NCBI GenBank assembly: GCA_012517355.1
Contig: JAAYVD010000134.1
Coordinates: 124,001-188,000, forward strand
Direction: 5' to 3'
Source of the DNA: Candidatus Rifleibacteriota bacterium
GTDB lineage: Bacteria; Muiribacteriota; Ozemobacteria; Ozemobacterales; Ozemobacteraceae
Length of the DNA stretch: 64,000 nt
Each line of letters opens with the position of its first letter. Position 1 is the first letter of the stretch. Of this stretch, positions 12,283 to 27,971 are shown piece after piece. Below the pieces are notes generated by a model that searched no databases, was not told the origin of the DNA, and worked only from the letters and a program-made list of their open reading frames with translations. Both the position numbers and the translations under genes were made by a program.

Positions 12283-13581
12283 TCACGGCTGGCCGATCTC
12301 CAGGGCGGGCGGCCCCTCCGGATCGTCGTCCGGGGACGGCAGCCCTTCCCGGTTGGGCCCGGCCGGGATCTCCGAGTCGGGGGGAGCCAGCCGCGACTCC
12401 CGCAACAGGAGCATCGCCACGAAGGCGGTGGCCAGGAAAGCAGCGCTGAACCCGACGGCCGACGCGTCGAACGGCACCAGCCAGACGGTCGTGGCGAACT
12501 CGAGCAGGATCAGGCCGATCAGGAAGCCCACCACGTGCTCCCGTTTCTGCCAGCTGCAAAACAGAGCCCCCAGGGGGGCCCCGAAGGCGACGATGGGAAC
12601 CGCCGCCAACCACATTGGCCAGACCGCCGGGGCCAGCCGCCCGCTCAGGGCCAGGAAACCGAACCCGATCAGGGAGACGGCGGCCATCAAAAAGACCGTG
12701 GTGCGGGTGCCGACCTTCTCGTCGACGTCGTAGCGCAGGCAGAGCAGGATGAACAGCACGACGTCCGCCCCGCTGCCGACGATGGACGCCGCCAGCCCGC
12801 CGACCACCCCCGCCGCCACGAACTCGAGCCGCCGGCGACCGTGGTCGCAGGCCACCCGGGTCCGCAGGATGCGCGGCCGGCGGTTCATCCAGACGAGGAA
12901 GCCGCCGAAGGCCAGGGTGAACATCGTGAAGAAGATCTTCGGGTATGGCGGCACCACCAGCGGGGCCACCCAGGTCAGGCCGACGAGGACGGCGGGGGCG
13001 GCCCCCGCCAGGGTCCACCAGAAGACCGGTTCCAGGAACCGGTAGCCGCTGCGGGCGATCAACAGAGCCCCACAGGTCATGCCGACCGACTGGATGGCCA
13101 GGGCGAAGTCGCGCGCGGTGCTGGCCGGAAGGTGCAGGACCTTGGTGAAGACGGGGAAGGCCACCGCCCCGCCCCCTTCCGCCGTCGCCCCGGCCACGAA
13201 GGAGCCGAAGGCCATGGTGGCCGAGACCGGCCAGAGGTCCTGCAGGAAAGCAAACCCCGGCCCAAGGGCGAGATACAGGGCCCAGACGACCAGGACGACT
13301 ACCGAGACCAGGAACCGACCGACAGGAGGTCGGTCAAACCCCTTTGCTGCCACGGATGGCGGCGCGAAACGTCCGTTTCGCGCCGCGCAAAGGGGCCGAC
13401 CGGCCCCAGGCCGGTCATCCCGGCCCACGGTACTGGCCGGCGACGCGGCACACCCTTGTCGCGTTTCGCCAATGGGCGGACCGGCACCCTGTCGGCCAGC
13501 CCCGTCTCCTTCCGTGGCGGGCGCGGCAAAACCCTCGGTTTGCGCCTCGCCTGGCAGGTGGCCGGAGGGCTGTGCGGTCAT
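12283..13581 (-). CDS. TauE/SafE-family membrane permease with repeat-derived N-terminus
   Basis: A 432-residue protein. From about residue 90 it is a typical eight-helix TauE/SafE (sulfite/sulfoacetate exporter) transporter, with paired half-repeats around GATAEGGGAVAFPVFTKVL and VGGLAASIVGSGADVVLF. The first ~88 residues are low complexity and encoded by a triplicated ~75-bp element (GFAAPATEGDGAGRQGAG, CAASPASTVGRDDRPGAG and GRFAPPSVAAKGFDRPP are aligned copies). The ATG at 13579-13581 overlaps the TsaA stop as ATGA. If the extension is not translated, the native start would be internal near residue 88. Sulfur-compound export is only inferred from the family. Confidence 0.8.
   Translation of the reverse strand: MTAQPSGHLPGEAQTEGFAAPATEGDGAGRQGAGPPIGETRQGCAASPASTVGRDDRPGAGRPLCAARNGRFAPPSVAAKGFDRPPVGRFLVSVVVLVVWALYLALGPGFAFLQDLWPVSATMAFGSFVAGATAEGGGAVAFPVFTKVLHLPASTARDFALAIQSVGMTCGALLIARSGYRFLEPVFWWTLAGAAPAVLVGLTWVAPLVVPPYPKIFFTMFTLAFGGFLVWMNRRPRILRTRVACDHGRRRLEFVAAGVVGGLAASIVGSGADVVLFILLCLRYDVDEKVGTRTTVFLMAAVSLIGFGFLALSGRLAPAVWPMWLAAVPIVAFGAPLGALFCSWQKREHVVGFLIGLILLEFATTVWLVPFDASAVGFSAAFLATAFVAMLLLRESRLAPPDSEIPAGPNREGLPSPDDDPEGPPALEIGQP
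13327..13550 (-). repeat. tandem triplicate of a palindromic in-frame element (family copy A)
   Basis: Three aligned units of about 75 bp lie in the 5' part of the TauE gene. The leftmost unit folds into three nested perfect stems: GGTCGG/CCGACC (13328-13333/13396-13401), CCCCTTTGC/GCAAAGGGG (13339-13347/13387-13395) and a 13-bp stem ending GGCGCGAAACG/CGTTTCGCGCC (13359-13371/13374-13386). The frame stays open through all copies. Related copies are at 29763, 52571 and probably 54404. Confidence 0.7.
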
Positions 13582-14072
13582 GGCTTCCGCTCGAACCGGT
13601 CGTCGGCCAGGACGCACTCGTCCTTGCGGAGCCGGTGTTCGTACCAGCCGATGCGGGTGGGCTGGAAGTGATCGAAGTCGGGAACATAGGGCTTGATGTC
13701 GAGCAGAGGGGTCCCGTCGAGCATGTCGGCCCCTTCGAAGGTCAGGCGGGTGCCCTCGATGGTCAGCAGCTGGACGATCGACAGCCCGATCGGGTTCGGC
13801 CGCTTCGGGGAGCGGGTGGCGAACACCCCGTGTTCCTTGCCGTCGAGGAAAGGGGTGACCTTCAGGGCTCCTTTGTCCATGCGGTCGAGGACGTAGAGGA
13901 GATAGACGTGGGAAAACCCCTCCAGGTCGGTCAGACCTTCCGCATAGGCGGGCCGGATGTCGATGTGCCCGCGCTCCCGGGTGGCCCGGGCCTGGATCGG
14001 CGTGCCCGCCGCCCGCGCGAACGGGGTGTGGATGACCCCGATGGGCTGGAACGCGAAGATCGGCTCAGCCAT
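13578..14072 (-). CDS. TsaA/TrmO-like (YaeB/UPF0066) family protein
   Basis: A 164-residue protein of the TsaA family, whose characterised member TrmO uses S-adenosylmethionine to N6-methylate a threonylcarbamoyl-adenosine in tRNA. Seen motifs are FQPIGVIHTPF at the start, the invariant FATRSPKRPNPIGLS around residues 80-94, and DGTPLLDIKPYVP near 120. The ATG at 14070-14072 was preferred over upstream codons because the family starts here; it overlaps the BMC gene by 8 bp. Short single-domain members like this are often found outside tRNA contexts, so the substrate is open. Confidence 0.88.
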   Translation of the reverse strand: MAEPIFAFQPIGVIHTPFARAAGTPIQARATRERGHIDIRPAYAEGLTDLEGFSHVYLLYVLDRMDKGALKVTPFLDGKEHGVFATRSPKRPNPIGLSIVQLLTIEGTRLTFEGADMLDGTPLLDIKPYVPDFDHFQPTRIGWYEHRLRKDECVLADDRFERKP

Positions 14073-14397
14073 GGAAGACCGCCTCTTCGATCCCGTCGGC
14101 CACGGCGGCCAGGGCGGCATTGACCGCGGAGGTGTCCCCATACACGGCGATGACCGATATGTGCGAGGGGCAGACCCCCTTGATCTCGGCCACCCGGACG
14201 GCGGCGGCCTTTTCGGCCAGGTCCGCGGCGGCGAAGACGGCGGCGGCCGGTCCCTGGATCAACCCGACGGCATCGGGAGGGGGAAACTCCTCGGGGAAGG
14301 TGGGCAACCGCACCCGACGGTGTTCGAGGATGGCCCAGAAGCCGGGGGATGGACGTTTCACCAGCAGCAGCTTGAGACCGGCGGGGGTGGGGTTCAT
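14065..14397 (-). CDS. lone bacterial-microcompartment (BMC) shell-domain protein
   Basis: A 110-residue protein. From residue ~42 it aligns by eye with the BMC shell fold: DAVGLIQGPAAAVFAAADLA, then EKAAAVRVAEIKGV, then HISVIAVYGDTSAVNAAL, matching the family pattern (A)VGxIE...EAADAMVKAA...V..GDV..V..A. The first ~40 residues are an extra segment. Both ends overlap neighbours (ATGA with PadR, 8 bp with TsaA). No second shell gene or encapsulated enzyme is in the window, so it probably acts alone, perhaps as a regulator or ligand-binding hexamer, rather than building a compartment. Confidence 0.7.
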   Translation of the reverse strand: MNPTPAGLKLLLVKRPSPGFWAILEHRRVRLPTFPEEFPPPDAVGLIQGPAAAVFAAADLAEKAAAVRVAEIKGVCPSHISVIAVYGDTSAVNAALAAVADGIEEAVFHG

Positions 14398-14915
14398 GGC
14401 GTCTCCCGAACCGCGGAACCCTGGCCGGCCCGGGTCCTTCCGGACCCCGTGGGGGCCCGTCGTCCGGCCGTGGTCCCGCGGCCCACGGCAACCCGTCGGG
14501 GAGCTGACCGTGGGGCGGGAGACGGGGGCTCCGGTCGTTCCGCGTCGATGGCGGCCACGAATCCGGCCAGGGAGGCCTGCAGGGCGGCCAGCACCCCGCG
14601 CCACTCCAGCAGGTGGCGGTTGCCCTTGGCGGTCAGGCGGTAGGCCCGGCGGGCGGGACCGCGCCCGGTCTGCCAGGCCGAGGTGACGTGCCCGTTCCGC
14701 TCGAGGACGCGCAGGGTACGGTAGAGGGCCGGCCCGTCGATCGGCACGCCGGTCAGCTCGTGCCCCTGCAGGCCGGTCAGCAGTTCATACCCATGGGCGG
14801 AACCCCGCTCACGCAGGGTGAACAACAGGAGCGGTTCCACGAACCGGTTGAGACTGTTCATGGCGCAGGAACAGGATTCCGGGGACTTCCGGGTTGCTGG
14901 TGACGAACGGGGCAC
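14394..14915 (-). CDS. PadR-family transcriptional regulator
   Basis: A 173-residue regulator. The winged-helix PadR domain spans about residues 24-95 (LLLFTLRERGSAHGYELL, PALYRTLRVLERNGHV, RAYRLTAKG). The C-terminal half is short and Arg/Pro/Gly-rich rather than the usual coiled dimer arm. The GTG at 14913-14915 is taken as the start because GGAGG lies 5 bases upstream; an internal ATG at 14859-14861 has a poor site. A strong promoter is 32 bp upstream of the start. Being first in the operon, it probably autoregulates the BMC-TsaA-TauE genes. Confidence 0.85.
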   Translation of the reverse strand: MPRSSPATRKSPESCSCAMNSLNRFVEPLLLFTLRERGSAHGYELLTGLQGHELTGVPIDGPALYRTLRVLERNGHVTSAWQTGRGPARRAYRLTAKGNRHLLEWRGVLAALQASLAGFVAAIDAERPEPPSPAPRSAPRRVAVGRGTTAGRRAPTGSGRTRAGQGSAVRETP

Positions 14916-16004: not shown

Positions 16005-16916
16005 TCAGACGCGGGTGGTGGCTGGGGGAGCGGGGCGCGGCCCGGCCTTGGTGGCAGGCTGGAGGATGGCCGCCAGCAGCTCGGGGGTGATGTTCACCTG
16101 GCCGATCTTGGCGGCGTTGGCGCCGAGGTCTTTCAGGCCCATGGCGAGGAGGGCGGCCGGCTCGATCTCCTTGAACGGGGCGAGCCGCACCGTGGTGGCC
16201 GCCGCCTCGAACTCCGCCTGGGCGCGGACGTTCTGGCCCTCGAGCGCGACCAGCTGCTGCCGCTGGGTCTCGAGGGTGATGCTGGTGGTCAGCTCGTTCT
16301 CCTTGATGCGGCGCTCCTGGTCGACGGCCAGGGCCCGACGCTTGTAGATGGCCTGGTCGGCCTTGATCTGCAGGTTCTCGCGATACTCGGCCTCGAGGGC
16401 TTTGGCCATCTCCGGGGTGGGCTTGGCGCTGATCACGTGCAGGGTCACCACCTCGACCCCCAGCCGGGTCAGGCTGTCGACCCCCCGCAGCTGGCCGAGC
16501 ACCCGCTGGGCGACCTCGCCGGCCTGGCGCAGGGCGTCCTCCAGGGTCATCTTCTGGAGTTCGAGCCGGAACAGGGTCTGCATCTCGTTGATGATGCGCT
16601 GCGACAGTTTCTCGGGGTCTTCGGAACGGTAAACGCGGGTGTCCGGGTCGAGCGCGAAGTTGAGGAGGTTGGCCACCGTCTCGGGTTGCGTCACCCGGAA
16701 GGTCATCTGCCCCTGCACGGTGACCGCCTGGAAGCTGCCCACCGTCTCGTTGAGGATGAACGGCACGTCGATGGTGCCGGTCGGCACGCAGACGATGCTG
16801 GTGCTCGGCCGCCAGAAGAAGAACGAGATCCCCTGCCCGCGCCGGGTCACCACCCCGTTACGGTAGACCAGCACGAACTCGTGCGGTTCCCCTTTGAAAT
16901 AGCCGATCCAGAACAT
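16005..16916 (-). CDS. SPFH/band-7 domain membrane-associated protein
   Basis: A 303-residue SPFH-superfamily protein (stomatin/prohibitin/flotillin-like), which forms large membrane-bound rings or scaffolds. It begins MFWIGYFKGEPHEFVLVY with no obvious transmembrane helix. The SPFH core (about residues 14-190) is followed by a charged helical stretch (ALEAEYRENLQIKADQAIY, ELTTSITLETQRQQ). The ATG at 16914-16916 follows a strong GGAGGGGAGGAG site. SPFH proteins often partner PspA or proteases in membrane-stress modules, and a PspA gene is upstream in this block, supporting such a role. Confidence 0.85.
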   Translation of the reverse strand: MFWIGYFKGEPHEFVLVYRNGVVTRRGQGISFFFWRPSTSIVCVPTGTIDVPFILNETVGSFQAVTVQGQMTFRVTQPETVANLLNFALDPDTRVYRSEDPEKLSQRIINEMQTLFRLELQKMTLEDALRQAGEVAQRVLGQLRGVDSLTRLGVEVVTLHVISAKPTPEMAKALEAEYRENLQIKADQAIYKRRALAVDQERRIKENELTTSITLETQRQQLVALEGQNVRAQAEFEAAATTVRLAPFKEIEPAALLAMGLKDLGANAAKIGQVNITPELLAAILQPATKAGPRPAPPATTRV

Positions 16917-16949
16917 GCGGCGTCTCCTCCCCTCCACGGATGTCGGACC

Positions 16950-17648: not shown

Positions 17649-19457
17649 CTACTCGGCGAGACGCATCTTCAGCTGGTCGACGCGCTGCTTGACCTTGCCC
17701 AGGTCGAGGTCGGCGAACTTTCCGGGCAGGAACCGCTTGTCGGTGCATTCCAGCACCGCGACGAGGTCCATGTATTCGAGCCGTTCGGCGTGGGCCATCG
17801 GCCGGTAGCAGGCCATGGCCTCCTTCAGGAAGTGGGCGATGGGTTTCTTCTCGGGCCCCTCGTCCTGCACCTCGAACAGCCGGGAGGCCATGATCAGGAT
17901 GCCTTCCATCTCGTTGCCGCCGATGTCGAGCTCGGCGGGGAAGTCGGGCACCTCTTCCGGTTTCACGTCGACCTTGTTCTTCTTCGCCAGCGCCAGGAAC
18001 AGCTCCCGCTTGTCCTCGGAGGTTTGCGGCGAGAACAGCGGCATGTGAACGTCGAGGCGGCCGACGCGCTTGAGGTCGACCTCGAGCAGGTCGGGCCGCG
18101 AGGTGGCGAAGATCCAGAAGATGCGGCCGCGGTTGCGGGTGTCGGCCATCTCCCGCGCCAGCATGGCGTAGATGCGGCCGGACAGTCCGGCGTCGTTGCC
18201 GCCGGAGTCGCGCTTCCCGGCCACCTGGTCGGCCTCGTCGACGAAGACGATGACCTGGCCCATGGCGTGCAGGATCTTGAAGATGCTCTCGAGGTTGCCC
18301 TCGGTGGCGCCCACCCATTTGTCGCGGAAGTTCTTCAGCTCGACGCAGGCCACCCCGGCCTCGCCGGCGAAGCACTCGACGAGGTAGGTCTTGCCGGTGC
18401 CGATGCGGCCGGTGATCAGGTAGCCCATCGGCAGGGCCTTCGACTTCCCCTTCTTCATCAGCATGGCGTCCTGGCGCATCCAGTTCTTCGCCTCGCGGTG
18501 GCCGGCCACGGCGTCGAGGTTGCGCGTCGATTCGACGAACTCGATGCGGCCGCCGGCCGACTTCTCGATCATCTCCTTCTTCACCGACCGCAGGTATTCC
18601 ATGGTGATGCGGCGGTTGTTCTTGACGGCGCGGTTGACGAGGTTCTGGATGTCGATGCGGGCGAGCCCCTCGAGCTTCTGGCTGAGGGTGGGCCGATCGA
18701 CGTCGCAGACCGTGGTGAAGTCGGCGATCGACAGGGTCGCGGCCTCGATGAACTCGCGCACCTCCTCGGCGTCGGGCAGGTCGATGCGCAGCTTGGCCGA
18801 GCGCGGGTTCTCGACGACGTCCTTGTTGAGGTCGGCGATGTTCTCGGCGATCAGGCAGGTGGCGATGAAGGCGCTGTTGATGCTGGGGTCAGACGCCCAG
18901 TCGGAGACCCGGATCAGCGTCTCGACCATCTCGGGGTTGATGTAGGCCGGGTCGGTACGCGGCAGCAGATACTGCGCGTAGTCGAGGATCACCGCCACCT
19001 TGACCGGGTCGGCGATCCGCTTGCCCTCCGGGCCCGGCTTGGTGCGGAACAGCCCGTTGCGGAGGAACCGGTCGATCAGCGCCAACGCCCGCTTCGGCTC
19101 CTTGGGGAGCAGGTTGCCCATCTCGAGGGCGCGGCCGGGATCCTTTTCCGGGGACGCGGAGATGCCGGAAAACCCGGTGCGATGGAACTCGTCGAACACC
19201 TTCAAAAAGCCCTGGAACAGGTCCCCGCCCTTCAGGGCGCGGATGCCGTTGCCGCGGTCGTAGGCGAGCACCACCTCGAACGGCTCGAACATGACCTTGG
19301 CGAGGAAGTCGCGCAGGGCGAACAACTGCAGGGGCGCGGTGGGTGAGGGCCTCCAGGACACCCAGTCCTCGACGTTGCCGTACAGGATGAACTGGCTGAC
19401 GGTGCCGCTCTTGAAGATCTCGGCCATTTCCCTGGCCCACTTGGGCGATTCGGACAT
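17649..19457 (-). CDS. AAA+ ATPase with degenerate N-terminal AAA-like half
   Basis: A 602-residue protein. The C-terminal half is an active-looking AAA+ module: Walker A GRIGTGKTY near residue 350, Walker B VIVFVDEAD near 402, sensor/Arg-finger region RIFWIFATSRPDLLEVDLKR, as in FtsH/p97-type remodelers. The N-terminal half has features of a worn P-loop fold (FILYGNVEDW, VAVILDYAQYLLP) without a Walker A. No protease motif (HExxH) is present. The ATG at 19455-19457 has GGAGGG four bases upstream. It follows a membrane coiled-coil gene by 12 bp, so a membrane-linked unfoldase or remodeler acting with PspA/SPFH is a reasonable inference. Confidence 0.82.
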   Translation of the reverse strand: MSESPKWAREMAEIFKSGTVSQFILYGNVEDWVSWRPSPTAPLQLFALRDFLAKVMFEPFEVVLAYDRGNGIRALKGGDLFQGFLKVFDEFHRTGFSGISASPEKDPGRALEMGNLLPKEPKRALALIDRFLRNGLFRTKPGPEGKRIADPVKVAVILDYAQYLLPRTDPAYINPEMVETLIRVSDWASDPSINSAFIATCLIAENIADLNKDVVENPRSAKLRIDLPDAEEVREFIEAATLSIADFTTVCDVDRPTLSQKLEGLARIDIQNLVNRAVKNNRRITMEYLRSVKKEMIEKSAGGRIEFVESTRNLDAVAGHREAKNWMRQDAMLMKKGKSKALPMGYLITGRIGTGKTYLVECFAGEAGVACVELKNFRDKWVGATEGNLESIFKILHAMGQVIVFVDEADQVAGKRDSGGNDAGLSGRIYAMLAREMADTRNRGRIFWIFATSRPDLLEVDLKRVGRLDVHMPLFSPQTSEDKRELFLALAKKNKVDVKPEEVPDFPAELDIGGNEMEGILIMASRLFEVQDEGPEKKPIAHFLKEAMACYRPMAHAERLEYMDLVAVLECTDKRFLPGKFADLDLGKVKQRVDQLKMRLAE

Positions 19458-19469
19458 CGTTCCCTCCAA

Positions 19470-20339
19470 CTACTGGCGTTCGAGGTTGGCGGGGGGGATG
19501 GGCAGGGGCCCTTCCTCCACCGCCGGGTCGTTGATCCTGGTGAGGAACTCCGAATGGGAGTCCATGAACTGGGCCGTTTCCCCGAGCGTGGCGTTGATCC
19601 GGTCGATGCCGGCGGTGATGGCATCGGGGGAGCGGTCGAGGGCGATCTCCTCCCGGATCAGCTGCACCTGGTTCTCGATGCGGTTCAGCTCCATCTCGAC
19701 CAGTTTGAGGTTTTCCTGGGCCCGCCGGATGTTGTCGAGCCGGCGCTGCTGGATCTCGATGGTGCCGCGCAGCGATTTGCCCAGCGCCTCGCTCAGGTCG
19801 GGGGTGTCGAGCTGGCGGGTGAGGTCCTTGATCTCGGTCTTCAGCTTGTCGACGTCGGTGCGCTCGAGGCTCTGGCAGATCAGGCGCCGCGTCACCAGCA
19901 GTTTCAGGAAGAACGTGGGCAGCTGGGCCAGGGTCTGCTGCTTGGTTTCCTTGACGAACTGCACGGTGCCTTCAGAACTCATGTCCATCAGGCGGTTGAT
20001 CTCGGACAGGTTGAGATTCAGCGTTTCGAGCCGCTTGGTGGATTCGCGGTCGAGGGTGGCCATCATGGCCTGCAGCCGCTCGTTCTTGGCGGCCGAGACC
20101 ACGTTCATGCGGTTGGCCTGCACATAGCGCTGGAAGCGGGCGTCGGTCGAGGTCATCCACAGGAAGGTCACCTCGAGGGCGGCCCCCACGAACCAGAACC
20201 CGGGGTTGGCCAGGCCGAGGATGGCGACCCCCGCCAGCGCCATCTTGTTGACCGGCATCTTCCCGAGGCCGGGGACGTCCCACCGGACGTCGAAGGCGGC
20301 CCACAGGTAGTCCATGAAACCGAGCGGCGGAGGCGCCAT
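19470..20339 (-). CDS. membrane-anchored coiled-coil protein of the ABC/PspA locus
   Basis: A 289-residue protein. Residues ~30-63 hold a hydrophobic hairpin (NKMALAGVAILGLANPGFWF, GAALEVTFLWM). It is followed by long charged helices with heptad-like spacing (about 75-285, for example RLDNIRRAQENLKLVEMELN). It lies 1 bp after the ABC ATPase gene and 12 bp before the AAA+ gene, so it is cotranscribed and may bridge the transporter and the ATPase at the inner membrane. I do not recognise a named family. Topology suggests most of the protein is cytosolic. Confidence 0.65.
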   Translation of the reverse strand: MAPPPLGFMDYLWAAFDVRWDVPGLGKMPVNKMALAGVAILGLANPGFWFVGAALEVTFLWMTSTDARFQRYVQANRMNVVSAAKNERLQAMMATLDRESTKRLETLNLNLSEINRLMDMSSEGTVQFVKETKQQTLAQLPTFFLKLLVTRRLICQSLERTDVDKLKTEIKDLTRQLDTPDLSEALGKSLRGTIEIQQRRLDNIRRAQENLKLVEMELNRIENQVQLIREEIALDRSPDAITAGIDRINATLGETAQFMDSHSEFLTRINDPAVEEGPLPIPPANLERQ

Positions 20340-20340
20340 G

Positions 20341-22230
20341 TCAGAATTTCCCTTCTTCGATCTTCAGGAAGTCTTCGGTCACGCCCTTCAAAAACTCCTT
20401 GAACCGCTGCGACTCCTGCACTTCCAGAGGGCTCATGCCGCGTTCCTTGCCGATGTCCGAGGGCTTGACCCAGCGCTGTTTGACCAGCCGGCCCGGGGCG
20501 GGGGCGAAAATGAAGATGCGGTCGCCCAGGTAGCAGGCTTCGGCCACCGAGTGCGTGACGATGAAGACGGTGGCCTCGACCTCGTGCCACAGCTCGGTGA
20601 TCAGTTGCTGCATGTCGATGCGGGTGGGCTCGTCGAGGGCCGAGAACGGTTCGTCCATCAGGATGATGCGGGGCTTCAACACGAGGGTTCGGGCGATGGC
20701 CACGCGCTGCTGCTGCCCGCCCGACAACTGGTACGGATACTTGTGCTCGTGCCCGCTCAGGCCGACCTTTTTGATGATGTCCATGGCCCGCATCTTCATG
20801 GTGGCCGCGTCGCCGTACCCGGGAGCGTTGATCTGCAGGCCGAACATCACGTTCTCGAGAACGGTCTGGTGCGGGAAGGAACTGTATTTCTGAAAGATCA
20901 TGCCGCGGTCGCGGCCCGGGCCGGTGACCGGCACGTTGCGCACCAGCACCTCGCCCGTGGTCGGGGGCCAGACCTCGGGGAAGCCCTGGATCAGGTTCAG
21001 CACCGTCGATTTGCCGCAGCCCGAGGGGCCGATCAGCGCGATGAATTCGCCGATGTCGGGCAGGTCCTCGATCGAGAAGGAGATGTTTTCGATGGCCTTG
21101 AACTCGAGCGGGGTGCCGGGGTTGAAGACCTTGCTGACGTTCTTGAAGGTCACCACCGGCGGCCGGAGATTGACGCCGGCCGCGGCCGCAGGCACCGGCG
21201 CTCCGCCCGCCACCGGAGCGGGGGACGGCCGGGGGGTCGCGTCGGCCGCCCCCATGGGGGCGGACCCGGTTTCCTGGACCGCCATCACCCGATGGGGGGC
21301 GGGAGGGGTGGAACCGTCGCCGGAGGCCGGGGCGGGAGGTTCACCGGCGACCGGGGAGACCGGGGCCGTGGCCTGAGGTGCGGCACCGGGCGTGGGGGAC
21401 GCGGGGGACGCGGAGGGAGCGGGGGGCGAGAGGGGCGGGAGGGGCGCGGAGGGAGAGAGGGGCGCGGGGGGCGAGAGGGGCGGGAGGGGCGCGGAGGGAG
21501 AGAGGGGCGCGGGGGAAATGCCGGGGGTGGGCCCGGGCGGGGTCCCCGGGGCGGCCACCGGCGCTGGTCCGGGGAAGGGGAAGCCTTCCGGGGGGGCCTT
21601 GGGCCCGCCCGGCCCAACGGCAGGGGGCGGCTCGTCGGCCGGACCGGTCGCCGCCGGGAAGGCGGGTTTCGCGGGGGTGGCGGCGGAGAGGGCCGCCGGC
21701 TCGGCAGGATGGGCAGTCACGGCCGCTCCGCCGGCTGGCATCGCGGCCTTCGGGTGGCCCGGCTCCGCGGGACCGACGGGACCGGGCCGGGCGGCGGACG
21801 GCATTCCAGCGGCGGGCGGGACGGAAGTTGGCGTTTCCGCGGCTGGCGGATGGGCGGCGGGGTTCCCCGTCACCGGTCGGTCGGGTTCGGCGGGATGCCC
21901 GGAGGTCGCCCGCTCCCCGGCGAGCCTGCCGGAAGGGGAAAGCCCAGGAGCCGTCGTGCCGCCGACCGGCGGGCGGGCCCCGGAGGCAACCGCCCCGGGG
22001 GCCCGGGGAGCGGCCGTTCCCGTTCCGGGGCCGGCAGGCGGGGCGTTGGGGTGGCGGGACGGGGCCCGGGTGGCCGACGCGACCGGCGCGGCCGGCACGG
22101 TGGGCGGGGTGGTGGGCGGGGTGCCGGACGGGTCATCCGCGTCATCGGCGGTGCGGTAGAACAGGTTGATGAACCGCTTCCACAGGGACTTCTGGGGCGG
22201 GGTCGGTGGGGTGCCGGATGGCTGGCTCAT
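20341..22230 (-). CDS. nitrate/sulfonate/taurine-type ABC transporter ATPase with giant Pro-rich N-terminal extension
   Basis: A 629-residue ABC ATPase. The catalytic domain begins near residue 357 and is standard for the NrtD/SsuB/TauB group: Walker A GPSGCGKST near 400, signature LSGGQQQRV near 505, IILMDEPFSALDEP, and a switch His in VTHSVAEA. In front lies a ~355-residue disordered stretch of Pro, Ala, Gly and Ser, including an exact 45-bp DNA duplication (APLPPLSPPAPLSPS twice). The far N-terminus (SLWKRFINLFYRTADD) is a short amphipathic helix that could touch the membrane. The ATG overlaps the permease stop (ATGA). Such an extension is far outside the ~260 residues usual for the family. 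Confidence 0.88.
   Translation of the reverse strand: MSQPSGTPPTPPQKSLWKRFINLFYRTADDADDPSGTPPTTPPTVPAAPVASATRAPSRHPNAPPAGPGTGTAAPRAPGAVASGARPPVGGTTAPGLSPSGRLAGERATSGHPAEPDRPVTGNPAAHPPAAETPTSVPPAAGMPSAARPGPVGPAEPGHPKAAMPAGGAAVTAHPAEPAALSAATPAKPAFPAATGPADEPPPAVGPGGPKAPPEGFPFPGPAPVAAPGTPPGPTPGISPAPLSPSAPLPPLSPPAPLSPSAPLPPLSPPAPSASPASPTPGAAPQATAPVSPVAGEPPAPASGDGSTPPAPHRVMAVQETGSAPMGAADATPRPSPAPVAGGAPVPAAAAGVNLRPPVVTFKNVSKVFNPGTPLEFKAIENISFSIEDLPDIGEFIALIGPSGCGKSTVLNLIQGFPEVWPPTTGEVLVRNVPVTGPGRDRGMIFQKYSSFPHQTVLENVMFGLQINAPGYGDAATMKMRAMDIIKKVGLSGHEHKYPYQLSGGQQQRVAIARTLVLKPRIILMDEPFSALDEPTRIDMQQLITELWHEVEATVFIVTHSVAEACYLGDRIFIFAPAPGRLVKQRWVKPSDIGKERGMSPLEVQESQRFKEFLKGVTEDFLKIEEGKF
21419..21508. repeat. 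two tandem 45-bp units in the Pro-rich extension
   Basis: A purine-rich 45-bp unit on the plus strand (built from GAGAGGGGCGGGAGGGGCGC and a variant) occurs twice in tandem, encoding two copies of a 15-residue Ala/Pro/Leu/Ser block in the ABC ATPase. Likely slippage or recombination within a low-complexity linker. Confidence 0.7.
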
Positions 22231-23450
22231 CGTTTCATCCTCCGGTAGGGGAAGGCCCAGTCGCCGCCCCATTCCCACAGCTTGTCGGTAATGAAGGCGA
22301 TCAGCACGATGATCAGCAGCACCAGGTAGATGTGCTCGCGCGGCCCCTGCCGCTGGCTGACCAGGATCAGGGCGCCGACGCCGCCGCTGCCCATGTCGAC
22401 CATCTCGGCCAGGATGATATACCCCCAGCCGATGCCGAAGCCCATCCGCATGGCATCGAAGATGTTCGGCCAGGCGATGCCCAGCAGGATGTGCCAGACG
22501 GTCTGGGCCCGTGTGGCGCCCAGGGTGTAGGCGGTCTGCAGGTAGACGTTGTCCACCTCCTCGATCGCCCTGACGAACAGGGGGAGCAGGTAGATGCCGA
22601 ACCCGAGGGCCAGGAACATCACCTTCTGCAACTCGGAGGTGCCGAACAGGCTCATCGTCAGCGGCACCAGGGTGGGGATGGGCAGATACCCGCCGAAGGT
22701 CATCAGCGGCGCGAACAGCGATTTCCAGCGGCTGAAGCTGCCCATGAAGATGCCCAGCGGAAAGGTGACGGCCAGGGCGACCAGGAACCCGAGGGCGACG
22801 CGTTTGAAGCTGTGGCCGACGTTCCAGAAGGGGCGGCGGTCGTTCCACAGGGCGCGGAGCGAGCGGACCACCTCCATGGGGCTGGGCAGGATGACGCGCG
22901 TGATCAGGCGGGACTGGACATCCTCGAACAAATAGACCCAGAGGTTGACCGTCATGGTGGCCGGGGGCGGCGGGAGCCGTGTCCCTCCGCGGCCGACCGG
23001 GGTGACCTCGGCCCCGACCGTCACCCCGATCTCCTGGGTGATGGTCCCGATGAAGGTCCCGCGGGGCAGCTTGACCCTCACCCCGCCCTCGACCTCCCGG
23101 GACGGAAGGCTGTGCAGCGGATAGCTGGCGACCGACCCGGTAAGGAAGGTCTCGAACCGGTCCTTCTCCAGTTCCACGTCGATCCGCCGGAAACCGGGAA
23201 CCAGGTAGGAGGTGTCATCAGGGCAGGCCTGGCCGATGGCGGGGCCTCCGTCCGTGTCTCCGACCCGGCCCTCGGGGACGACCAGCCGCTCGGTCCGGCC
23301 CCAGGTGGTGAGGGTCCAGACCAGCAACAGGGCGACCACGGGCAGCACGCCCAGCACGGCATTCTCGGTGCCGGGCACCTTGACCCGGATCCGGAAGCAG
23401 GAGTCGAGGTAGGTGGCCAGCTTGTTGGCGGGGGAAGGAGGGTTGGTCAC
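22227..23450 (-). CDS. ABC transporter permease (SsuC/NrtB type) with periplasmic insert
   Basis: A 407-residue inner-membrane permease. A first helix (AVLGVLPVVALLLVWTL, about residues 31-48) is followed by a ~115-residue soluble insert (about 55-170) that most relatives lack. The usual BPD transport domain follows, with the EAA loop reading AYTLGATRAQTVWHILLGIA, the docking site for the ATPase. Late helices end in WGGDWAFPYRRMKR. Its stop overlaps the ATPase start. It lies 63 bp after the OmpA-fused binding-protein gene, with a strong hairpin between. The insert probably faces the periplasm and may contact the fused binding protein. Confidence 0.85.
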   Translation of the reverse strand: MTNPPSPANKLATYLDSCFRIRVKVPGTENAVLGVLPVVALLLVWTLTTWGRTERLVVPEGRVGDTDGGPAIGQACPDDTSYLVPGFRRIDVELEKDRFETFLTGSVASYPLHSLPSREVEGGVRVKLPRGTFIGTITQEIGVTVGAEVTPVGRGGTRLPPPPATMTVNLWVYLFEDVQSRLITRVILPSPMEVVRSLRALWNDRRPFWNVGHSFKRVALGFLVALAVTFPLGIFMGSFSRWKSLFAPLMTFGGYLPIPTLVPLTMSLFGTSELQKVMFLALGFGIYLLPLFVRAIEEVDNVYLQTAYTLGATRAQTVWHILLGIAWPNIFDAMRMGFGIGWGYIILAEMVDMGSGGVGALILVSQRQGPREHIYLVLLIIVLIAFITDKLWEWGGDWAFPYRRMKR

Positions 23451-23513: not shown

Positions 23514-25193
23514 TTACTGGCCTTCCGGCGGGTAGACCGAGATCTCGACCCGGCGGTTGAGGGCCTGGTTCATCGGGTCGGCCTCGTCGGCCGGGCTTTC
23601 CCAGCCTTTGCCTTCGACGACGAACTTGTTCGGATCGAACTTGAACTTCTGCACCAGGGCTTCCTTGACGCCGTTGGCGCGGGCGTTGCTCAGTTCCTTG
23701 ACGATCTCCTGGGGCACCTTGCCTTTCATCGAGCTGTCGGTGTGGCCGACGATGGCGACGGTGGCGCGCTCGTAGGCGCCGACCAGGCGGGCGACCTTCT
23801 CGAGGGTGGCCTCGACGTTGGGGTCATACAGGGTGTTGGCCACGGGCCGGCCGATGTCGTCGTGCTGCGGCTCGTAGATATTGGCCGAGTTGGGGTAGAA
23901 GTTGATGCGCACGGTCTGGGTGATGATCGGCGCCTCGGCGTTGAGCTTCTTGTAGGTGGTGGGGACGAACTTGCTGATGTACTCGTCCTGGTGGGACTTG
24001 AAGGTGCCGTCCTTGTCGAGGGCCTGCAGGACGCCGAAGTCCATCACCTGGTCGAAGGCCACCTCGCCCTCGAGCCGCCCCACCTGCTTGTAGACCGAGC
24101 AGATGTTCTTCCAGGTGCGCTCGAAGTTGGTCGGATTGTTGCTGTTGAGGAAGAACGACTTGTTCTCGGCGAAGTTGGTCGAGTGGGCGTCGTTCTGCAT
24201 GCCCTTGATGTCCTCGACCTTCATCCCGTAGCCGTCGGCCATCCACTGGAAGGCCTGGGCCTTGAAGGTGGCGTCCTTCAACAGGTCCATGCCTTCGAAG
24301 ATGCCGGCCACCAGTCCCTTGACGACCTCGGGCTTGTCGCGGGCGAAGTCGGCGCGCACGGCCCAGACGTCGGCGATCAGCTTGTTGGCTTCGGCCGTGG
24401 TGGTCAGGATCTTGGTGCCGGCCACCTTCTCGGGAATGGTGTAGATATCGGGGGCCCAGCTGACGCAGGCGTCGATGGTCTTGTCGGAGACGAAGGCCGC
24501 GGCCGCCTCGAAGGCGGTCGGGGTGTATTTGAACTTGACCTGGTCGAGGGGCAGACCGGCGTTGATCAGCAGGTTGCTGACGAAGTATTCGGAGGGGCTG
24601 TTCTGGGCGCAGACGATGGTCTTGCCCTTGAGGTCGGCCACCGACCGGATGGCCGAACGGACCACGATGCCGTCGCCGCCGTTCGACCAGTCGATCTGCT
24701 GGAAGACGCGGGGCGCGGTGCGGCTGTCCTTCATCAGGCCGGGGGCGAACAGGGCGATCATGTCGAGGGTGCCCCACAGCACGTGGCTGTCCCCGTTGGC
24801 ATAGGAGTCACGGGCGGCGACCGGGTCGTCGATCAGCTTGAGGTCGACCTTGAAGCCGTATTTCTTGAAGAAGACGCTTTCCTCGTTCGGGGCGAACCCG
24901 TGGTTGGCGGCCACGATGGGCAGCCAGCCGATCCAGACGTTGATCGGGAAGACCACGACCTTGGCGTTGTCGTCCCACTTGTAGCCGGAGGTGCCCTTCA
25001 CGGGGGGCAGCTTCTCCTGCGGCACGTATTTGTATTCGGAAACGGTGGTGACCCCCTTGGTGTCGGGGGCCTCGACCGCGACCGGAGCGGCGCCCGCCGC
25101 GGTGGGGGCTTCCTGCGCCCGGACCGCGGGCGCGGTGAAACAACCGGCGGCCACCAGGGCCGCGAGCAGGAACAGGGTGACGAATCGTCTCAT
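23514..25193 (-). CDS. ABC substrate-binding protein fused to a C-terminal OmpA peptidoglycan-binding domain (paralog 1)
   Basis: A 559-residue exported protein. The signal ends in the lipobox-like VAAGC (Cys18), so it may be a lipoprotein. Residues ~75-400 are an NMT1/TauA/SsuA-type solute-binding fold (FPINVWIGWLPIVAANHGF, ADLKGKTIVCAQNSPSEYF, ACVSWAPDIYTIPEKVAG). The last ~140 residues are an OmpA-like domain (VAIVGHTDSSMKGK, KELSNARANGVKEAL, NQALNRRVEISVY) that normally grips peptidoglycan. GGAGGAAATC precedes the ATG. The fusion would tether the binding protein to the cell wall beside its permease. It is highly similar throughout to the protein at 26202-27971. Confidence 0.88.
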   Translation of the reverse strand: MRRFVTLFLLAALVAAGCFTAPAVRAQEAPTAAGAAPVAVEAPDTKGVTTVSEYKYVPQEKLPPVKGTSGYKWDDNAKVVVFPINVWIGWLPIVAANHGFAPNEESVFFKKYGFKVDLKLIDDPVAARDSYANGDSHVLWGTLDMIALFAPGLMKDSRTAPRVFQQIDWSNGGDGIVVRSAIRSVADLKGKTIVCAQNSPSEYFVSNLLINAGLPLDQVKFKYTPTAFEAAAAFVSDKTIDACVSWAPDIYTIPEKVAGTKILTTTAEANKLIADVWAVRADFARDKPEVVKGLVAGIFEGMDLLKDATFKAQAFQWMADGYGMKVEDIKGMQNDAHSTNFAENKSFFLNSNNPTNFERTWKNICSVYKQVGRLEGEVAFDQVMDFGVLQALDKDGTFKSHQDEYISKFVPTTYKKLNAEAPIITQTVRINFYPNSANIYEPQHDDIGRPVANTLYDPNVEATLEKVARLVGAYERATVAIVGHTDSSMKGKVPQEIVKELSNARANGVKEALVQKFKFDPNKFVVEGKGWESPADEADPMNQALNRRVEISVYPPEGQ

Positions 25194-25306
25194 GATTTCC
25201 TCCGTGGATGGGATGGGCCCGGCGTCACGCGCCTGGCCTCACAAACTGCGGAACGGGTGGGGTGGGCAGGGAGAGGCCCTGCGGGGAATGGGTGCGGTCG
25301 CGAAGG

Positions 25307-25328
25307 CGCGGGGCCGGCCGGCCCCGCG
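25307..25328. repeat. 22-bp perfect palindrome between pspA-like and binding-protein genes
   Basis: CGCGGGGCCGG/CCGGCCCCGCG is a gapless 22-bp palindrome. A second small dyad (GGTCGC/GCGACC) follows at about 25333. It lies in the 213-bp gap after the PspA-like gene and mirrors the hairpin on the other side of the binding-protein gene. Nothing else is recognisable in the gap besides the downstream gene's GGAGG. Confidence 0.6.
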
Positions 25329-25406
25329 GCGGGGTCGCGTGGCGACCGACGCGGGGCAGGCTTCCTTCCGCGGTGGTCGCCAGGCGGATGGAGGCGGTCA
25401 TGGCGG

Positions 25407-26171
25407 CTATTGGCGGGGCCCCAGTTCCTTCTCGGTGGGAAGCGGGGGAGCCATCGGGCTCTCGGCGGTTTCCGGGAGGTTCTCGCCGGTCTTCATGTCG
25501 AGCCCGTACATGGCCGAGAACTCGGCCAGGGCCTGTTCGCCCAGGGCGGCTTCCTCGGCTTCCTTCATCTTGATGCCGCTGGTATCGATGCTGTTGCCGG
25601 CCACCCGGGCGCGGCCGGCCGCCTTGTCGCGGCGCTCCTGGATCACTTCCTGGGCCCGGTTGATGGTGTCGCCGGCGGCGCTGATGCCGCCGACCATGCC
25701 CTTGGCCATTTCCTGGAGCTCGGCCTGGGCTTCCATCATCTCGGCCTCGCTGACCAGGGCCTGCAGTTTCTCGATCTTGGCCTGCGCCTCACGCACCGAG
25801 ACGTCGCGCGACTTCTCGAGGTCCTTGAAGGTCTTGTCGGACATCTCGAGCTGCTGCTTGTTCTCCTCGAGCTGGGCCTTGACGGTCTGCAGCTGGAGGG
25901 CGAGCTGGCCGGCCACCTGGCGGTTGCCCGCCTTGATGTTGGCGGCGATCTTGGCGGCCAGTTCCTTTTCCTTGGTGCCGAGGTTCTTCACCTGCCGGAT
26001 GAGCCGCTCGACGAAGGCGGCGTGGTTGGCCAGCGCCTCGTTGAAGCGGGAGATCTGCGAACGCAGGTTCTCCTTTTCCGCTTCGATCAGGGCGTGCGGG
26101 TTCTGGGCCTCGAGCCCCCGGATGAACAGACTGAAGAAGCCCCGGATGAGATTCATGAGTCGGCTGAACAT
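25407..26171 (-). CDS. PspA/IM30 (Vipp1) family membrane-stress protein
   Basis: A 254-residue nearly all-helical protein of the PspA/IM30 family, ESCRT-III-like membrane remodelers. It starts with an amphipathic helix (MFSRLMNLIRGFFSLFIR) and continues with long coiled coils (EKENLRSQISRFNEALANHA, QLALQLQTVKAQLEENKQQL). After residue ~220 it has an unusual acidic/Pro tail ending PTEKELGPRQ. The two OmpA-fused binding-protein genes flank it, 30 bp from one. No PspF/PspBC-type partners are seen. It probably senses or patches membrane damage at the transporter complex; the link is inferred from the shared operon. Confidence 0.85.
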   Translation of the reverse strand: MFSRLMNLIRGFFSLFIRGLEAQNPHALIEAEKENLRSQISRFNEALANHAAFVERLIRQVKNLGTKEKELAAKIAANIKAGNRQVAGQLALQLQTVKAQLEENKQQLEMSDKTFKDLEKSRDVSVREAQAKIEKLQALVSEAEMMEAQAELQEMAKGMVGGISAAGDTINRAQEVIQERRDKAAGRARVAGNSIDTSGIKMKEAEEAALGEQALAEFSAMYGLDMKTGENLPETAESPMAPPLPTEKELGPRQ

Positions 26172-26201
26172 GGTTCCCTGTCTCCTCTGCGATGATGTGC
26201 G

Positions 26202-27971
26202 TTACTGCTCCGGCGTGAAGACCTGGATCTCGACGCGGCGGTTGAGGGCGTGGTTGGCGGGGTCGGCGCCGTCGGCGGGCTCGTCCCAGCCCTTGCCGAT
26301 GGCGATCAGCTTGTTGGCGGGGAACTTGTACTTCCGCACCAGCGCGTCGCGGACCGCCTGGGCGCGGGCATCCGACAACTCCTTGACGGCCTTCTCGGGC
26401 ACCTTCCCCTTCATCGAGGCGTCGGTGTGGCCGACCACCCCGATCATGGCCCGCTCGTATTGCCCCACCAGCCGGCCCACCTTCTCGAGGGTGGCATCGA
26501 CCGACGGGTCGTACAGGCTGTTGGGGATGGCCGCCCCGAATTCGTCGTGTTCGGGCTCGTAGAGATTGGACGAATTGGGGAAGAAGTTGATGCGCACGGT
26601 CTGGGTCAGCACCGGGGCCTCGGCCGAGACCTTCTTGTAGGTGGTCGGCACGAACCGCGACTGGGCGACCTCCTGCTGGTCCTTGAAGGCGCCTTCCTTG
26701 TCGTAGCCCTGGATCACCGAGAAGTCCATCACCTCGTCGAACCGCACCGGCGTGCCCACCAGGCCGAGTTCGCGGTAGACGGCGGTGATGTTGTTCCAGG
26801 TGCGTTCGAAGTTCGTCGGGTTGTTCTTGTTGAGGAAGAACTCCTTGTTCTCGCCGAAGGTCGTCAGGTGGGCATCGTTCTCCATGCCCTTGATGTCCTC
26901 GACCTTCATGCCGTAGCCGTCGGCCATCCACTGGAAGGCCTTGGCCTTGTTGGCCCCGTTCTTCAGCAGGGCCATGCCTTCGAAGATGCCCCCCACCAGG
27001 CCCTTCACCACCTCGGGGTGGTCCTTGGCGAAGTCGGCGCGCACCGCGTAGACGTCGGCGATCAGCCGGTTGGCCTCGGCGGTGGTGGTCAGGACGCGGG
27101 TGCCGGCCACCTTCTCGGGGATCGTGTAGATGTCGGGCGCCCAGCTGACGCAGGCGTCGATCGACTTGTCGGAGACGAAAGCGGCGGCCGCCTCGAACGC
27201 GGTCGAGGTGAACTTGTGGGTGATCTTGCCCGGCCCGAGTCCGGCGTTGACCAGCAGGTTGTTGATGAAATACTGCGACGGGCTGTTCTGGGCGTAGACC
27301 ACCGTCTTGCCCTGCAGGTCTTTCACCGAGCGGATGTTGCCGCGCACCACGATGCCGTCGCCGCCGCTCGACCAGTCGATCTGCTGGAAGATGCGGGGCG
27401 CGGTGCGGCTGTCCTTCATCAGTTCGCCGGCGAACAGCACCATCATGTCGAGGGTGCCCCACAGCACGTGCGACTTGCCCGAGGCGTAGGTGTCACGGGC
27501 GACGACCGGGTCGTCGATCAGCTTGAGGTTGACCCGGAACCCGTATTTCTTGAAGAAGATGCTCTCGTCGTTCGGCGCGAACCCGTTGTTGGCGGCCACG
27601 ATGGGCAACCAGCCGATCCAGACGTTGATCGGGAACTCGACCGTCTTGCGGGTCTCGTCCCACTCGTAGCCGGACACGCCCTTGACGGGGGGCAGCTTCT
27701 CCTGCGGCACGTAGGCGTATTCCTGCACCGTGGTGATGCCCTTGGTGTCGGGCGCCTCCACCTTCAGGGGTTCGGCTCCGCCGGAAGCGGACCCGGTGTT
27801 GGCGGGGCCGGACGGCCGGGAGCCGCTTCCCGAGCCCGTGCCCGAGCCGGTTCCCATGATGGCATTCTTCAGGGACGGGGAGAAATTGAACGCCGCGAAG
27901 ACCAGGCAACCGAGGATGAACAGGACCATCACCGCTTTGCCCAGAGGGGTTGGGCCGATATCCTGGCTCAT
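26202..27971 (-). CDS. ABC substrate-binding protein fused to OmpA domain, membrane-anchored (paralog 2)
   Basis: A 589-residue paralog of the protein at 23514-25193. Instead of a lipobox it has an uncleaved-looking N-terminal membrane helix (AVMVLFILGCLVFAAFNF, about residues 13-30) and a Gly/Ser linker. The NMT1/TauA-type binding fold (FPINVWIGWLPIVAANNGF, SWAPDIYTIPEKVAGTRVL) and the C-terminal OmpA domain (VGVVGHTDASMKGK, KELSDARAQAVRDAL, NHALNRRVEIQVF) follow. This one therefore spans from inner membrane to cell wall. It is first in the long operon, with a promoter ~75 bp upstream. Binding-site differences between the paralogs are few, so they may bind the same ligand in two anchored forms. 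Confidence 0.88.
   Translation of the reverse strand: MSQDIGPTPLGKAVMVLFILGCLVFAAFNFSPSLKNAIMGTGSGTGSGSGSRPSGPANTGSASGGAEPLKVEAPDTKGITTVQEYAYVPQEKLPPVKGVSGYEWDETRKTVEFPINVWIGWLPIVAANNGFAPNDESIFFKKYGFRVNLKLIDDPVVARDTYASGKSHVLWGTLDMMVLFAGELMKDSRTAPRIFQQIDWSSGGDGIVVRGNIRSVKDLQGKTVVYAQNSPSQYFINNLLVNAGLGPGKITHKFTSTAFEAAAAFVSDKSIDACVSWAPDIYTIPEKVAGTRVLTTTAEANRLIADVYAVRADFAKDHPEVVKGLVGGIFEGMALLKNGANKAKAFQWMADGYGMKVEDIKGMENDAHLTTFGENKEFFLNKNNPTNFERTWNNITAVYRELGLVGTPVRFDEVMDFSVIQGYDKEGAFKDQQEVAQSRFVPTTYKKVSAEAPVLTQTVRINFFPNSSNLYEPEHDEFGAAIPNSLYDPSVDATLEKVGRLVGQYERAMIGVVGHTDASMKGKVPEKAVKELSDARAQAVRDALVRKYKFPANKLIAIGKGWDEPADGADPANHALNRRVEIQVFTPEQ

What the first reader, a model, noticed from the sequence alone, without database searches (positions are those of the whole stretch)
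23514..27971. Paralogous solute-binding proteins fused to OmpA domains, one lipoprotein-like and one membrane-anchored
Both proteins carry an NMT1/TauA-type binding fold plus an OmpA domain and are closely similar end to end, yet their N-termini differ: lipobox-like VAAGC in one, a membrane helix in the other. They bracket the PspA gene. Two anchor types with the same binding head would hold ligand sensors at different depths of the envelope.
Basis: seen in the sequence. Interest (0 to 1): 0.65.

Follow-up and report, generated by a model that had tools for sequence, protein, structure and literature searches.

The report
Twin wall-tethered binding proteins around PspA
Two near-identical small-molecule-binding proteins, both built to grip the cell wall but only one of them also fixed in the inner membrane, belong to a known import-pump and membrane-maintenance gene cluster, and this bacterial family carries a duplicated version of it.

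Summary
Both proteins (27971-26202 and 25193-23514, minus strand) carry a TauA/SsuA-type binding fold and a C-terminal OmpA domain, are 71% identical, and flank a PspA gene. The first has an uncleaved inner-membrane helix. The second is probably not a lipoprotein: the Cys of 'VAAGC' is present in 2 of 16 orthologues (Trp in a congener), while a signal-peptidase-I-like A|Q/E site is present in 16 of 16. The genome belongs to the Ozemobacteraceae (Riflebacteria). One duplication at the base of that family made the pair; elsewhere the gene is usually single and membrane-anchored, directly after pspA, in a pspA-SBP/OmpA-permease-ATPase-coiled-coil-AAA cluster. That cluster and domain fusion were described by Ravi et al. 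2024. New here: the duplicated, re-anchored copy, and a beta domain inserted in the permease of the same family. The taurine-amine-binding acids are invariant while aligned sulfonate contacts differ, suggesting a cationic ligand. Most likely: an ABC importer with two wall-tethered copies of one binding protein, coupled to PspA/AAA membrane maintenance.

The parts
26202..27971 (-). SBP1-OmpA, 589 aa: TM helix (residues 9-30), low-confidence linker (40-72), TauA-like binding fold (about 110-425), OmpA domain (about 455-585)
   Evidence: ORF; Pfam; model pLDDT 90.5; fold match
25407..26171 (-). PspA/IM30 family protein, 254 aa
   Evidence: PF04012 37 bits, cut-off 33.9
23514..25193 (-). SBP2-OmpA, 559 aa: signal peptide with A|QE site, same binding fold and OmpA domain
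   Evidence: ORF; Pfam; 71% identical to SBP1; orthologue N-termini
22227..23450 (-). ABC permease, 407 aa, with a beta domain (residues about 52-177) inserted after TM1
   Evidence: PF00528; alignment A3; model; CmpBCD/NrtBCD fold match
20341..22230 (-). ABC ATPase, 629 aa, with a long Pro/Ala-rich N-terminal extension; its start overlaps the permease stop (ATGA)
   Evidence: PF00005 102.7 bits (given from 22248); sequence; NCBIfam
19470..20339 (-). Coiled-coil protein with an N-terminal hydrophobic hairpin (NPGFWF), 289 aa, conserved in the cluster
   Evidence: no Pfam family over cut-off
17649..19457 (-). AAA+ ATPase, CDC48-like AAA domain in the C-terminal half, 602 aa
   Evidence: PF00004 82.8 bits
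28046..28075 (-). Promoter-like site (TTGCCT-18-TATATT) upstream of SBP1; consensus match only
   Evidence: 2 sites found in the region, 0.5 expected

Best explanation
These are the binding proteins of a TauABC/NrtABC-like ABC importer whose genes are joined to a PspA-AAA membrane-maintenance module. The ancestral binding protein spans the periplasm: a TM helix holds it in the inner membrane next to the permease and the OmpA domain grips peptidoglycan. In the Ozemobacteraceae the gene duplicated once. SBP1 kept the helix; SBP2, in the original place after pspA, exchanged it for a cleavable signal peptide and became a periplasmic protein held only by the wall. Both heads bind the same ligand, probably a small cation (amine or guanidinium). 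SBP2 acts as a capture pool along the wall and SBP1 as a captive feeder at the permease, whose family-specific beta domain may dock the free copy. PspA, the coiled-coil protein and the AAA ATPase keep the membrane intact where the complex is strapped to the wall. Shown by computation: domains, fold, single duplication, N-terminal types, conservation, cluster. Inferred: the ligand class, the division of labour, docking by the insert, and the role of PspA/AAA.
For: Domains and identity; confident two-lobed model with TauA as nearest solved fold; permease nearest to CmpBCD/NrtBCD; ATPase motifs intact. One duplication: SBP1 and SBP2 each one clade at 99, sisters at 95. pspA within 400 nt upstream of the last SBP gene in 62 of 84 loci. 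OmpA Asp517 and Arg536, and Asp205, Asp306, Trp277 of the pocket, invariant in 92 of 92. 237 of 242 fixed columns the same in both paralogue clades. Signal-peptidase-I-like site in 16 of 16 SBP2. Permease insert in the pair clade.
Against: No ligand, transport, wall binding or PspA interaction is shown. The pocket mapping rests on a remote sequence alignment. The insert and the duplication arose on the same stem branch, so their association is one event; L061 has a tandem pair with no insert. The cluster is patchy: 12 of 149 and 6 of 149 genomes in two drawn phylum samples.
Confidence: 0.5

Rival explanations
1. Receptor, not feeder: ligand-bound SBP1 signals through its TM helix and conserved cytoplasmic GPTPLGK start to PspA or the coiled-coil protein, and the ABC part adjusts envelope state rather than feeding the cell.
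For: The cytoplasmic motif is the same in 15 of 15 SBP1 rows and related motifs precede the TM in most single-copy proteins (55 of 69 rows by a motif written after inspection); pspA adjacency is conserved.
Against: The cluster keeps a full permease and ATPase; the motif could serve TM packing or insertion. No contact with PspA is shown.
Confidence: 0.2
2. SBP2 of the window is a true lipoprotein, held in a membrane by lipid as well as by the wall.
For: VAAGC in the window and AAGC in L016; an independent second copy in L061 has LMTGC, so a lipoprotein copy is a possible state.
Against: Cys at that place in 2 of 16 orthologues, Trp in L017; A|Q/E site in 16 of 16.
Confidence: 0.12
3. The heads have lost ligand binding and the proteins are structural struts between inner membrane and peptidoglycan.
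For: OmpA residues invariant in 92 of 92; few fixed differences between paralogues (5 of 242).
Against: Pocket residues are invariant too, and within genomes the head is more alike between paralogues (72-83%) than the OmpA part (60-72%). SBP2 lacks the membrane end.
Confidence: 0.08

Closest known systems
PspA / AAA+ / ABC ATPase / permease / PBPB-OmpA operons of Ravi et al. 2024 (PMC11237479, section 18; example OGG56892.1)
   Same: Same gene set and same domain fusion; the authors propose OmpA meets peptidoglycan and PBPB binds the solute
   Different: The section read does not mention two paralogous binding proteins, their different N-termini, or a permease insert; the paper's supplements were not seen
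TauABC / SsuABC alkanesulfonate importers
   Same: Binding fold (6ssy, 2x26); acids that hold taurine's amine kept as Asp205 and Asp306
   Different: Aligned sulfonate contacts Gly61, Gly79, Thr132 are Pro, Asp, Pro; OmpA domain and TM anchor added; far under NCBIfam taurine and sulfonate cut-offs
NrtABCD / CmpABCD nitrate and bicarbonate importers
   Same: Permease fold, Z 22.1, 2.6 A over 244 residues, 26% identity to CmpBCD; SBP fold matches NrtA and CmpA
   Different: No SBP-like regulatory domain on the ATPase here; permease has a beta insert
MalF-P2 region of the maltose importer
   Same: Works like it, if the insert docks a binding protein: a periplasmic permease region that contacts MalE (passage and reference title in PMC3150292)
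   Different: Inserted at another place in the permease (recalled); homology not tested
OmpA_C-like peptidoglycan-binding domains (A. baumannii Omp38)
   Same: Asp271 and Arg286 (PMC5974059 passage) align with Asp517 and Arg536
   Different: Fused to a binding protein; loop between the two residues four longer

Membership tests
NMT1/TauA-type solute-binding proteins (PF09084) | Domain over curated cut-off and matching fold | tested here: met
   34 and 31.1 bits against 20.5; TauA nearest solved fold
TauA (taurine) equivalog | NCBIfam taurine models over cut-off | tested here: not met
   Best 34.9 and 37.1 bits against 490; TIGR01729 24 and 27.2 against 304.25
TauA (taurine) equivalog | Amine-binding Glu106 and Asp205 kept as acids | tested here: met
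   SBP1 Asp205 and Asp306, invariant in 92 of 92
TauA (taurine) equivalog | Sulfonate contacts Gly61, Gly79, Thr132 | tested here: not met
   Aligned with Pro155, Asp175, Pro231; Gln30 lies outside the alignment
OmpA_C-like peptidoglycan-binding domain | PF00691 over cut-off and the diaminopimelate-binding Asp and Arg | tested here: met
   38 and 43.3 bits against 27.2; Asp517, Arg536 invariant in 92 of 92
OmpA_C-like peptidoglycan-binding domain | Binding of peptidoglycan | not testable with these tools
   Needs a pull-down
PspA/IM30 | PF04012 over cut-off | tested here: met
   37 bits against 33.9
PspA-AAA-ABC-PBPB/OmpA operon (Ravi et al. 2024) | Gene set in one cluster | tested here: met
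PspA-AAA-ABC-PBPB/OmpA operon (Ravi et al. 2024) | AAA protein with a second, inactive N-terminal AAA domain | tested here: inconclusive
   Only one AAA domain recognised, residues about 343-504; the N-terminal half was not folded
PspM (Rv2743c family) for the coiled-coil protein | PF25587 over cut-off | tested here: not met
   16.1 bits against 27.7, in 1 of 21 members
Bacterial lipoproteins, for SBP2 | Lipobox Cys kept in orthologues | tested here: not met
   2 of 16
Bacterial lipoproteins, for SBP2 | Lipid modification | not testable with these tools
   Needs labelling

The most novel reading that the evidence does not exclude
An ESCRT-III-like PspA/AAA machine is built around an ABC importer that is strapped to the cell wall: the membrane-anchored, wall-gripping binding protein is a strut whose ligand state and tension report the gap between membrane and wall to PspA through a conserved cytoplasmic stub, and the Ozemobacteraceae added a second, wall-only copy and a beta docking domain on the permease, separating ligand capture from anchoring.
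Probability: 0.15. Interest if true: 0.75.

Novelty: new variant of a known kind. Interest (0 to 1): 0.4.

Why it matters
The cluster suggests that some bacteria couple solute import to PspA-type membrane maintenance with a binding protein that touches both inner membrane and wall. The duplicated pair is a natural experiment: the same head with and without the membrane anchor, in one cluster. The conserved acids narrow the ligand to something testable, probably a small cation. If the anchor matters for PspA, the pair separates that role from ligand capture.

Tried and rejected
Lipoprotein reading of SBP2: rejected as the main reading by orthologue comparison, kept as a rival at 0.12.

Coiled-coil protein as PspM: the window protein's weak Pfam match was not repeated in its relatives (1 of 21).

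Band_7 gene (16005-16922) as part of the system: phmmer found no relative in the 84 representative loci beyond the window itself. The earlier query for it was cut out of frame, so its label is not evidence.

Taurine as the ligand: not favoured, because aligned sulfonate contacts differ. Urea or guanidine: the best NCBIfam family is the urea-carboxylase-associated TIGR03427 at 75.9 and 70.6 bits, far under its cut-off of 333.9; a lead only. No Rfam family reached its threshold anywhere in the window, so no guanidine riboswitch was found.

Functional split of the heads: 5 of 242 fixed columns differ between paralogue clades and none is a mapped pocket position.

The beta insert was folded only as part of the permease and was not searched alone; the structure matches are for the whole chain.

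Drawn samples: 12 of 149 genomes (phylum of the L061 genome, titled Planctomycetota) and 6 of 149 (phylum of the L020 genome, titled Acidobacteria) had a match at 1e-100; two of the 12 had two copies, none of the 6. The 84 representative loci include two pairs from one assembly each (L118/L119, L052/L065). Dropped before counting: L001-L010 and L087-L116 (short repeats of the same places) and L124-L126 (same contigs as L014, L040, L018). Not in the tree: the four most distant loci L083-L086 and pieces below the score limit. Of the 13 loci without pspA upstream, L119 is a first copy (SBP1), where none is expected. In one search, 9 rows outside the pair clade had no landmark and 4 were unclassed; these are not counted as evidence.
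Full report
WHAT IS THERE. On the minus strand, in order: SBP1-OmpA (27971-26202), PspA (26171-25407), SBP2-OmpA (25193-23514), ABC permease (23450-22227), ABC ATPase (22230-20341), a hydrophobic-hairpin coiled-coil protein (20339-19470) and an AAA+ ATPase (19457-17649). The permease stop and ATPase start overlap (ATGA) and the ATPase and coiled-coil genes almost touch, as in an operon. Pfam puts NMT1 and OmpA over cut-off in both SBPs. They are 71% identical over 541 residues without a gap and are the only two matches to SBP1 in the genome at E 0.01; the genome's six other OmpA places and three other NMT1 places are not among them.

STRUCTURE. The SBP1 model (92 aligned sequences) has mean pLDDT 90.5 and pTM 0.84: TM helix 9-30, a low-confidence linker 40-72, then the binding fold and a C-terminal OmpA domain. 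The nearest solved structure is E. coli TauA (E 2.6e-15, TM-score 0.77 by target length), followed among others by SsuA, NrtA and CmpA. The finding's own refutation therefore fails. By sequence profile the OmpA part is nearest to A. baumannii Omp38. Its diaminopimelate-binding Asp271 and Arg286 (passage in PMC5974059) align with the Asp and Arg that are Asp517 and Arg536 in SBP1, invariant in 92 of 92.

POCKET. TauA holds taurine's amine with Glu106, Thr132 and Asp205, and its sulfonate with Gln30 and the backbone of Gly61, Gly79 and Thr132 (passages in PMC6906117). I used the HMMER alignment printed and a numbering offset of 21, which fits Ser60, Gly61, Gly79, Glu106, Thr132, Trp176, Leu204 and Asp205 but not Asn55, Asp84 or Ser109 as printed in the passages. 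Glu106 then aligns with SBP1 Asp205, Asp205 with Asp306 and Trp176 with Trp277, all invariant in 92 of 92. Gly61, Gly79 and Thr132 align with Pro155, Asp175 (invariant) and Pro231. The amine end is kept and the anion end is not, with an extra acid. Inference: a small cation, perhaps an amine or guanidinium. This rests on a remote sequence alignment, not on coordinates.

N-TERMINI. All 15 pair-clade SBP1 rows have GPTPLGK before the helix. SBP2 has a hydrophobic stretch followed by Ala and then Q/E in 16 of 16 (15 by script; L050 by eye). The Cys of VAAGC is found in the window and L016 only; L017, 89% identical, reads AAGW. SBP2 is therefore best read as a signal peptidase I substrate, although the window sequence alone fits a loose lipobox (pattern recalled). 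The TM motif was written after looking at the rows, so its counts are descriptive. Outside the pair clade, 55 of 69 rows carry the TM motif, 1 looks like a cleaved signal (L073), 4 are unclassed (two cut off, one that looks TM-anchored by eye, and the second copy of L061) and 9 lacked the landmark; five of those nine look TM-anchored by eye.

DISTRIBUTION AND HISTORY. Record titles of the closest hits name Ozemobacteraceae and Ozemobacter. In the window's phylum 18 of 39 genomes have a match; in its family 16 of 24, of which 15 have both copies, one of these on two contigs and one with its first copy in two pieces around a masked stretch; the sixteenth lies at a contig end. In a tree of 95 rows built from the core without the N-terminal columns, SBP1 (14 rows) and SBP2 (16 rows) are each one clade (99*, 99*) and sisters (95*), so one duplication precedes the sampled family (quick method, SH-aLRT support only). 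Other loci, with titles from Acidobacteria, BRC1/Sumerlaeota, Krumholzibacteriota, Planctomycetota, Armatimonadota, Verrucomicrobia and others, mostly hold one copy with pspA before it. pspA lies within 400 nt upstream of the last SBP gene in 62 of 84 loci. In three more it is near by another measure (L061, 216 nt before the first of a tandem pair; L123, 109 nt before a stop-broken copy; L066, 479 nt); six have under 1 kb upstream; 13 show none. So the ancestral protein was very probably TM-anchored, and SBP2, in the ancestral position after pspA, lost the anchor. L061 has an independent tandem pair whose second copy has LMTGC. L060 has a tandem first copy with an internal stop.

SAME HEAD. 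Of 512 columns examined, 242 are fixed at 90% or more in both clades; 237 share the residue and 5 differ, none at a mapped pocket position. Within genomes the binding fold is 72-83% identical between paralogues, the OmpA part 60-72%, the linker 41-69%.

PERMEASE INSERT. All 15 pair-clade permeases aligned carry a stretch after TM1 that the four outgroup permeases shown lack (their rows begin at the permease core). The room available for it is 130-210 aa in 16 of 16 pair-clade loci, 5-91 aa in 56 of 57 others and 128 aa in one distant locus, L073. The model shows it as all-beta, residues 52-177, with weak stretches at 146-153 and 156-158. It lies in the first periplasmic loop. It arose on the same stem as the duplication, so the association counts once, and L061 has a pair without it.

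MECHANISM. Best supported: an importer with a captive, wall-gripping feeder (SBP1) and a wall-bound pool of the same binder (SBP2), in a cluster with PspA and an AAA ATPase for membrane upkeep. The ATPase motifs (GPSGCGKST, LSGGQQQR, ILMDEP; read) argue for working transport. The ligand class, the division of labour, docking by the insert and the role of PspA are inferred.

KNOWN OR NEW. Ravi et al. 2024 (PMC11237479; [quoted passage not shown] The combination is therefore in print. Searches for PspA with OmpA and NMT1, substrate-binding protein with OmpA-like domain, Riflebacteria with PspA and a Psp/solute-binding/OmpA/Vps4 set gave no other paper on it; one search listed one paper, seen only as a listing. 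Subscription journals and the supplements of Ravi et al. were not seen. The pair, the anchor switch and the insert are new to what I could read: a new variant of a known kind.

Noticed in passing
window 16005-16922 (-): Band_7/SPFH protein, 52.1 bits, about 700 nt after the AAA gene on the same strand; no relative in the 84 representative loci, so not part of the conserved cluster, although SPFH proteins accompany PspA elsewhere.
   Followed up: partly
window 12283-13617 (-): TauE/SafE-type sulfite exporter match (58.2 bits) on the same strand, some 4 kb downstream of the AAA gene.
   Followed up: no
window 14065-14604 (-): BMC (microcompartment shell) domain match, 32 bits against 24.5, in a short ORF.
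   Followed up: no
window 21230-22230 (-): The ABC ATPase carries a Pro/Ala-rich N-terminal extension of more than 300 aa before the ATPase domain; function unknown.
   Followed up: no
L061 11747-13456 (+): Independent tandem duplicate of the SBP-OmpA gene with a lipobox-like LMTGC, without a permease insert.
   Followed up: partly
G000:C96:76736-77314 (L154): A second PspA_IM30 gene elsewhere in the genome, 36 bits.
   Followed up: no
L014 (contig DYKG01000001.1): Record titled Methylomirabilis groups with the window's family in the tree, and its contig length equals that of a contig of G006 in that family; the title is probably a mislabel.
   Followed up: partly
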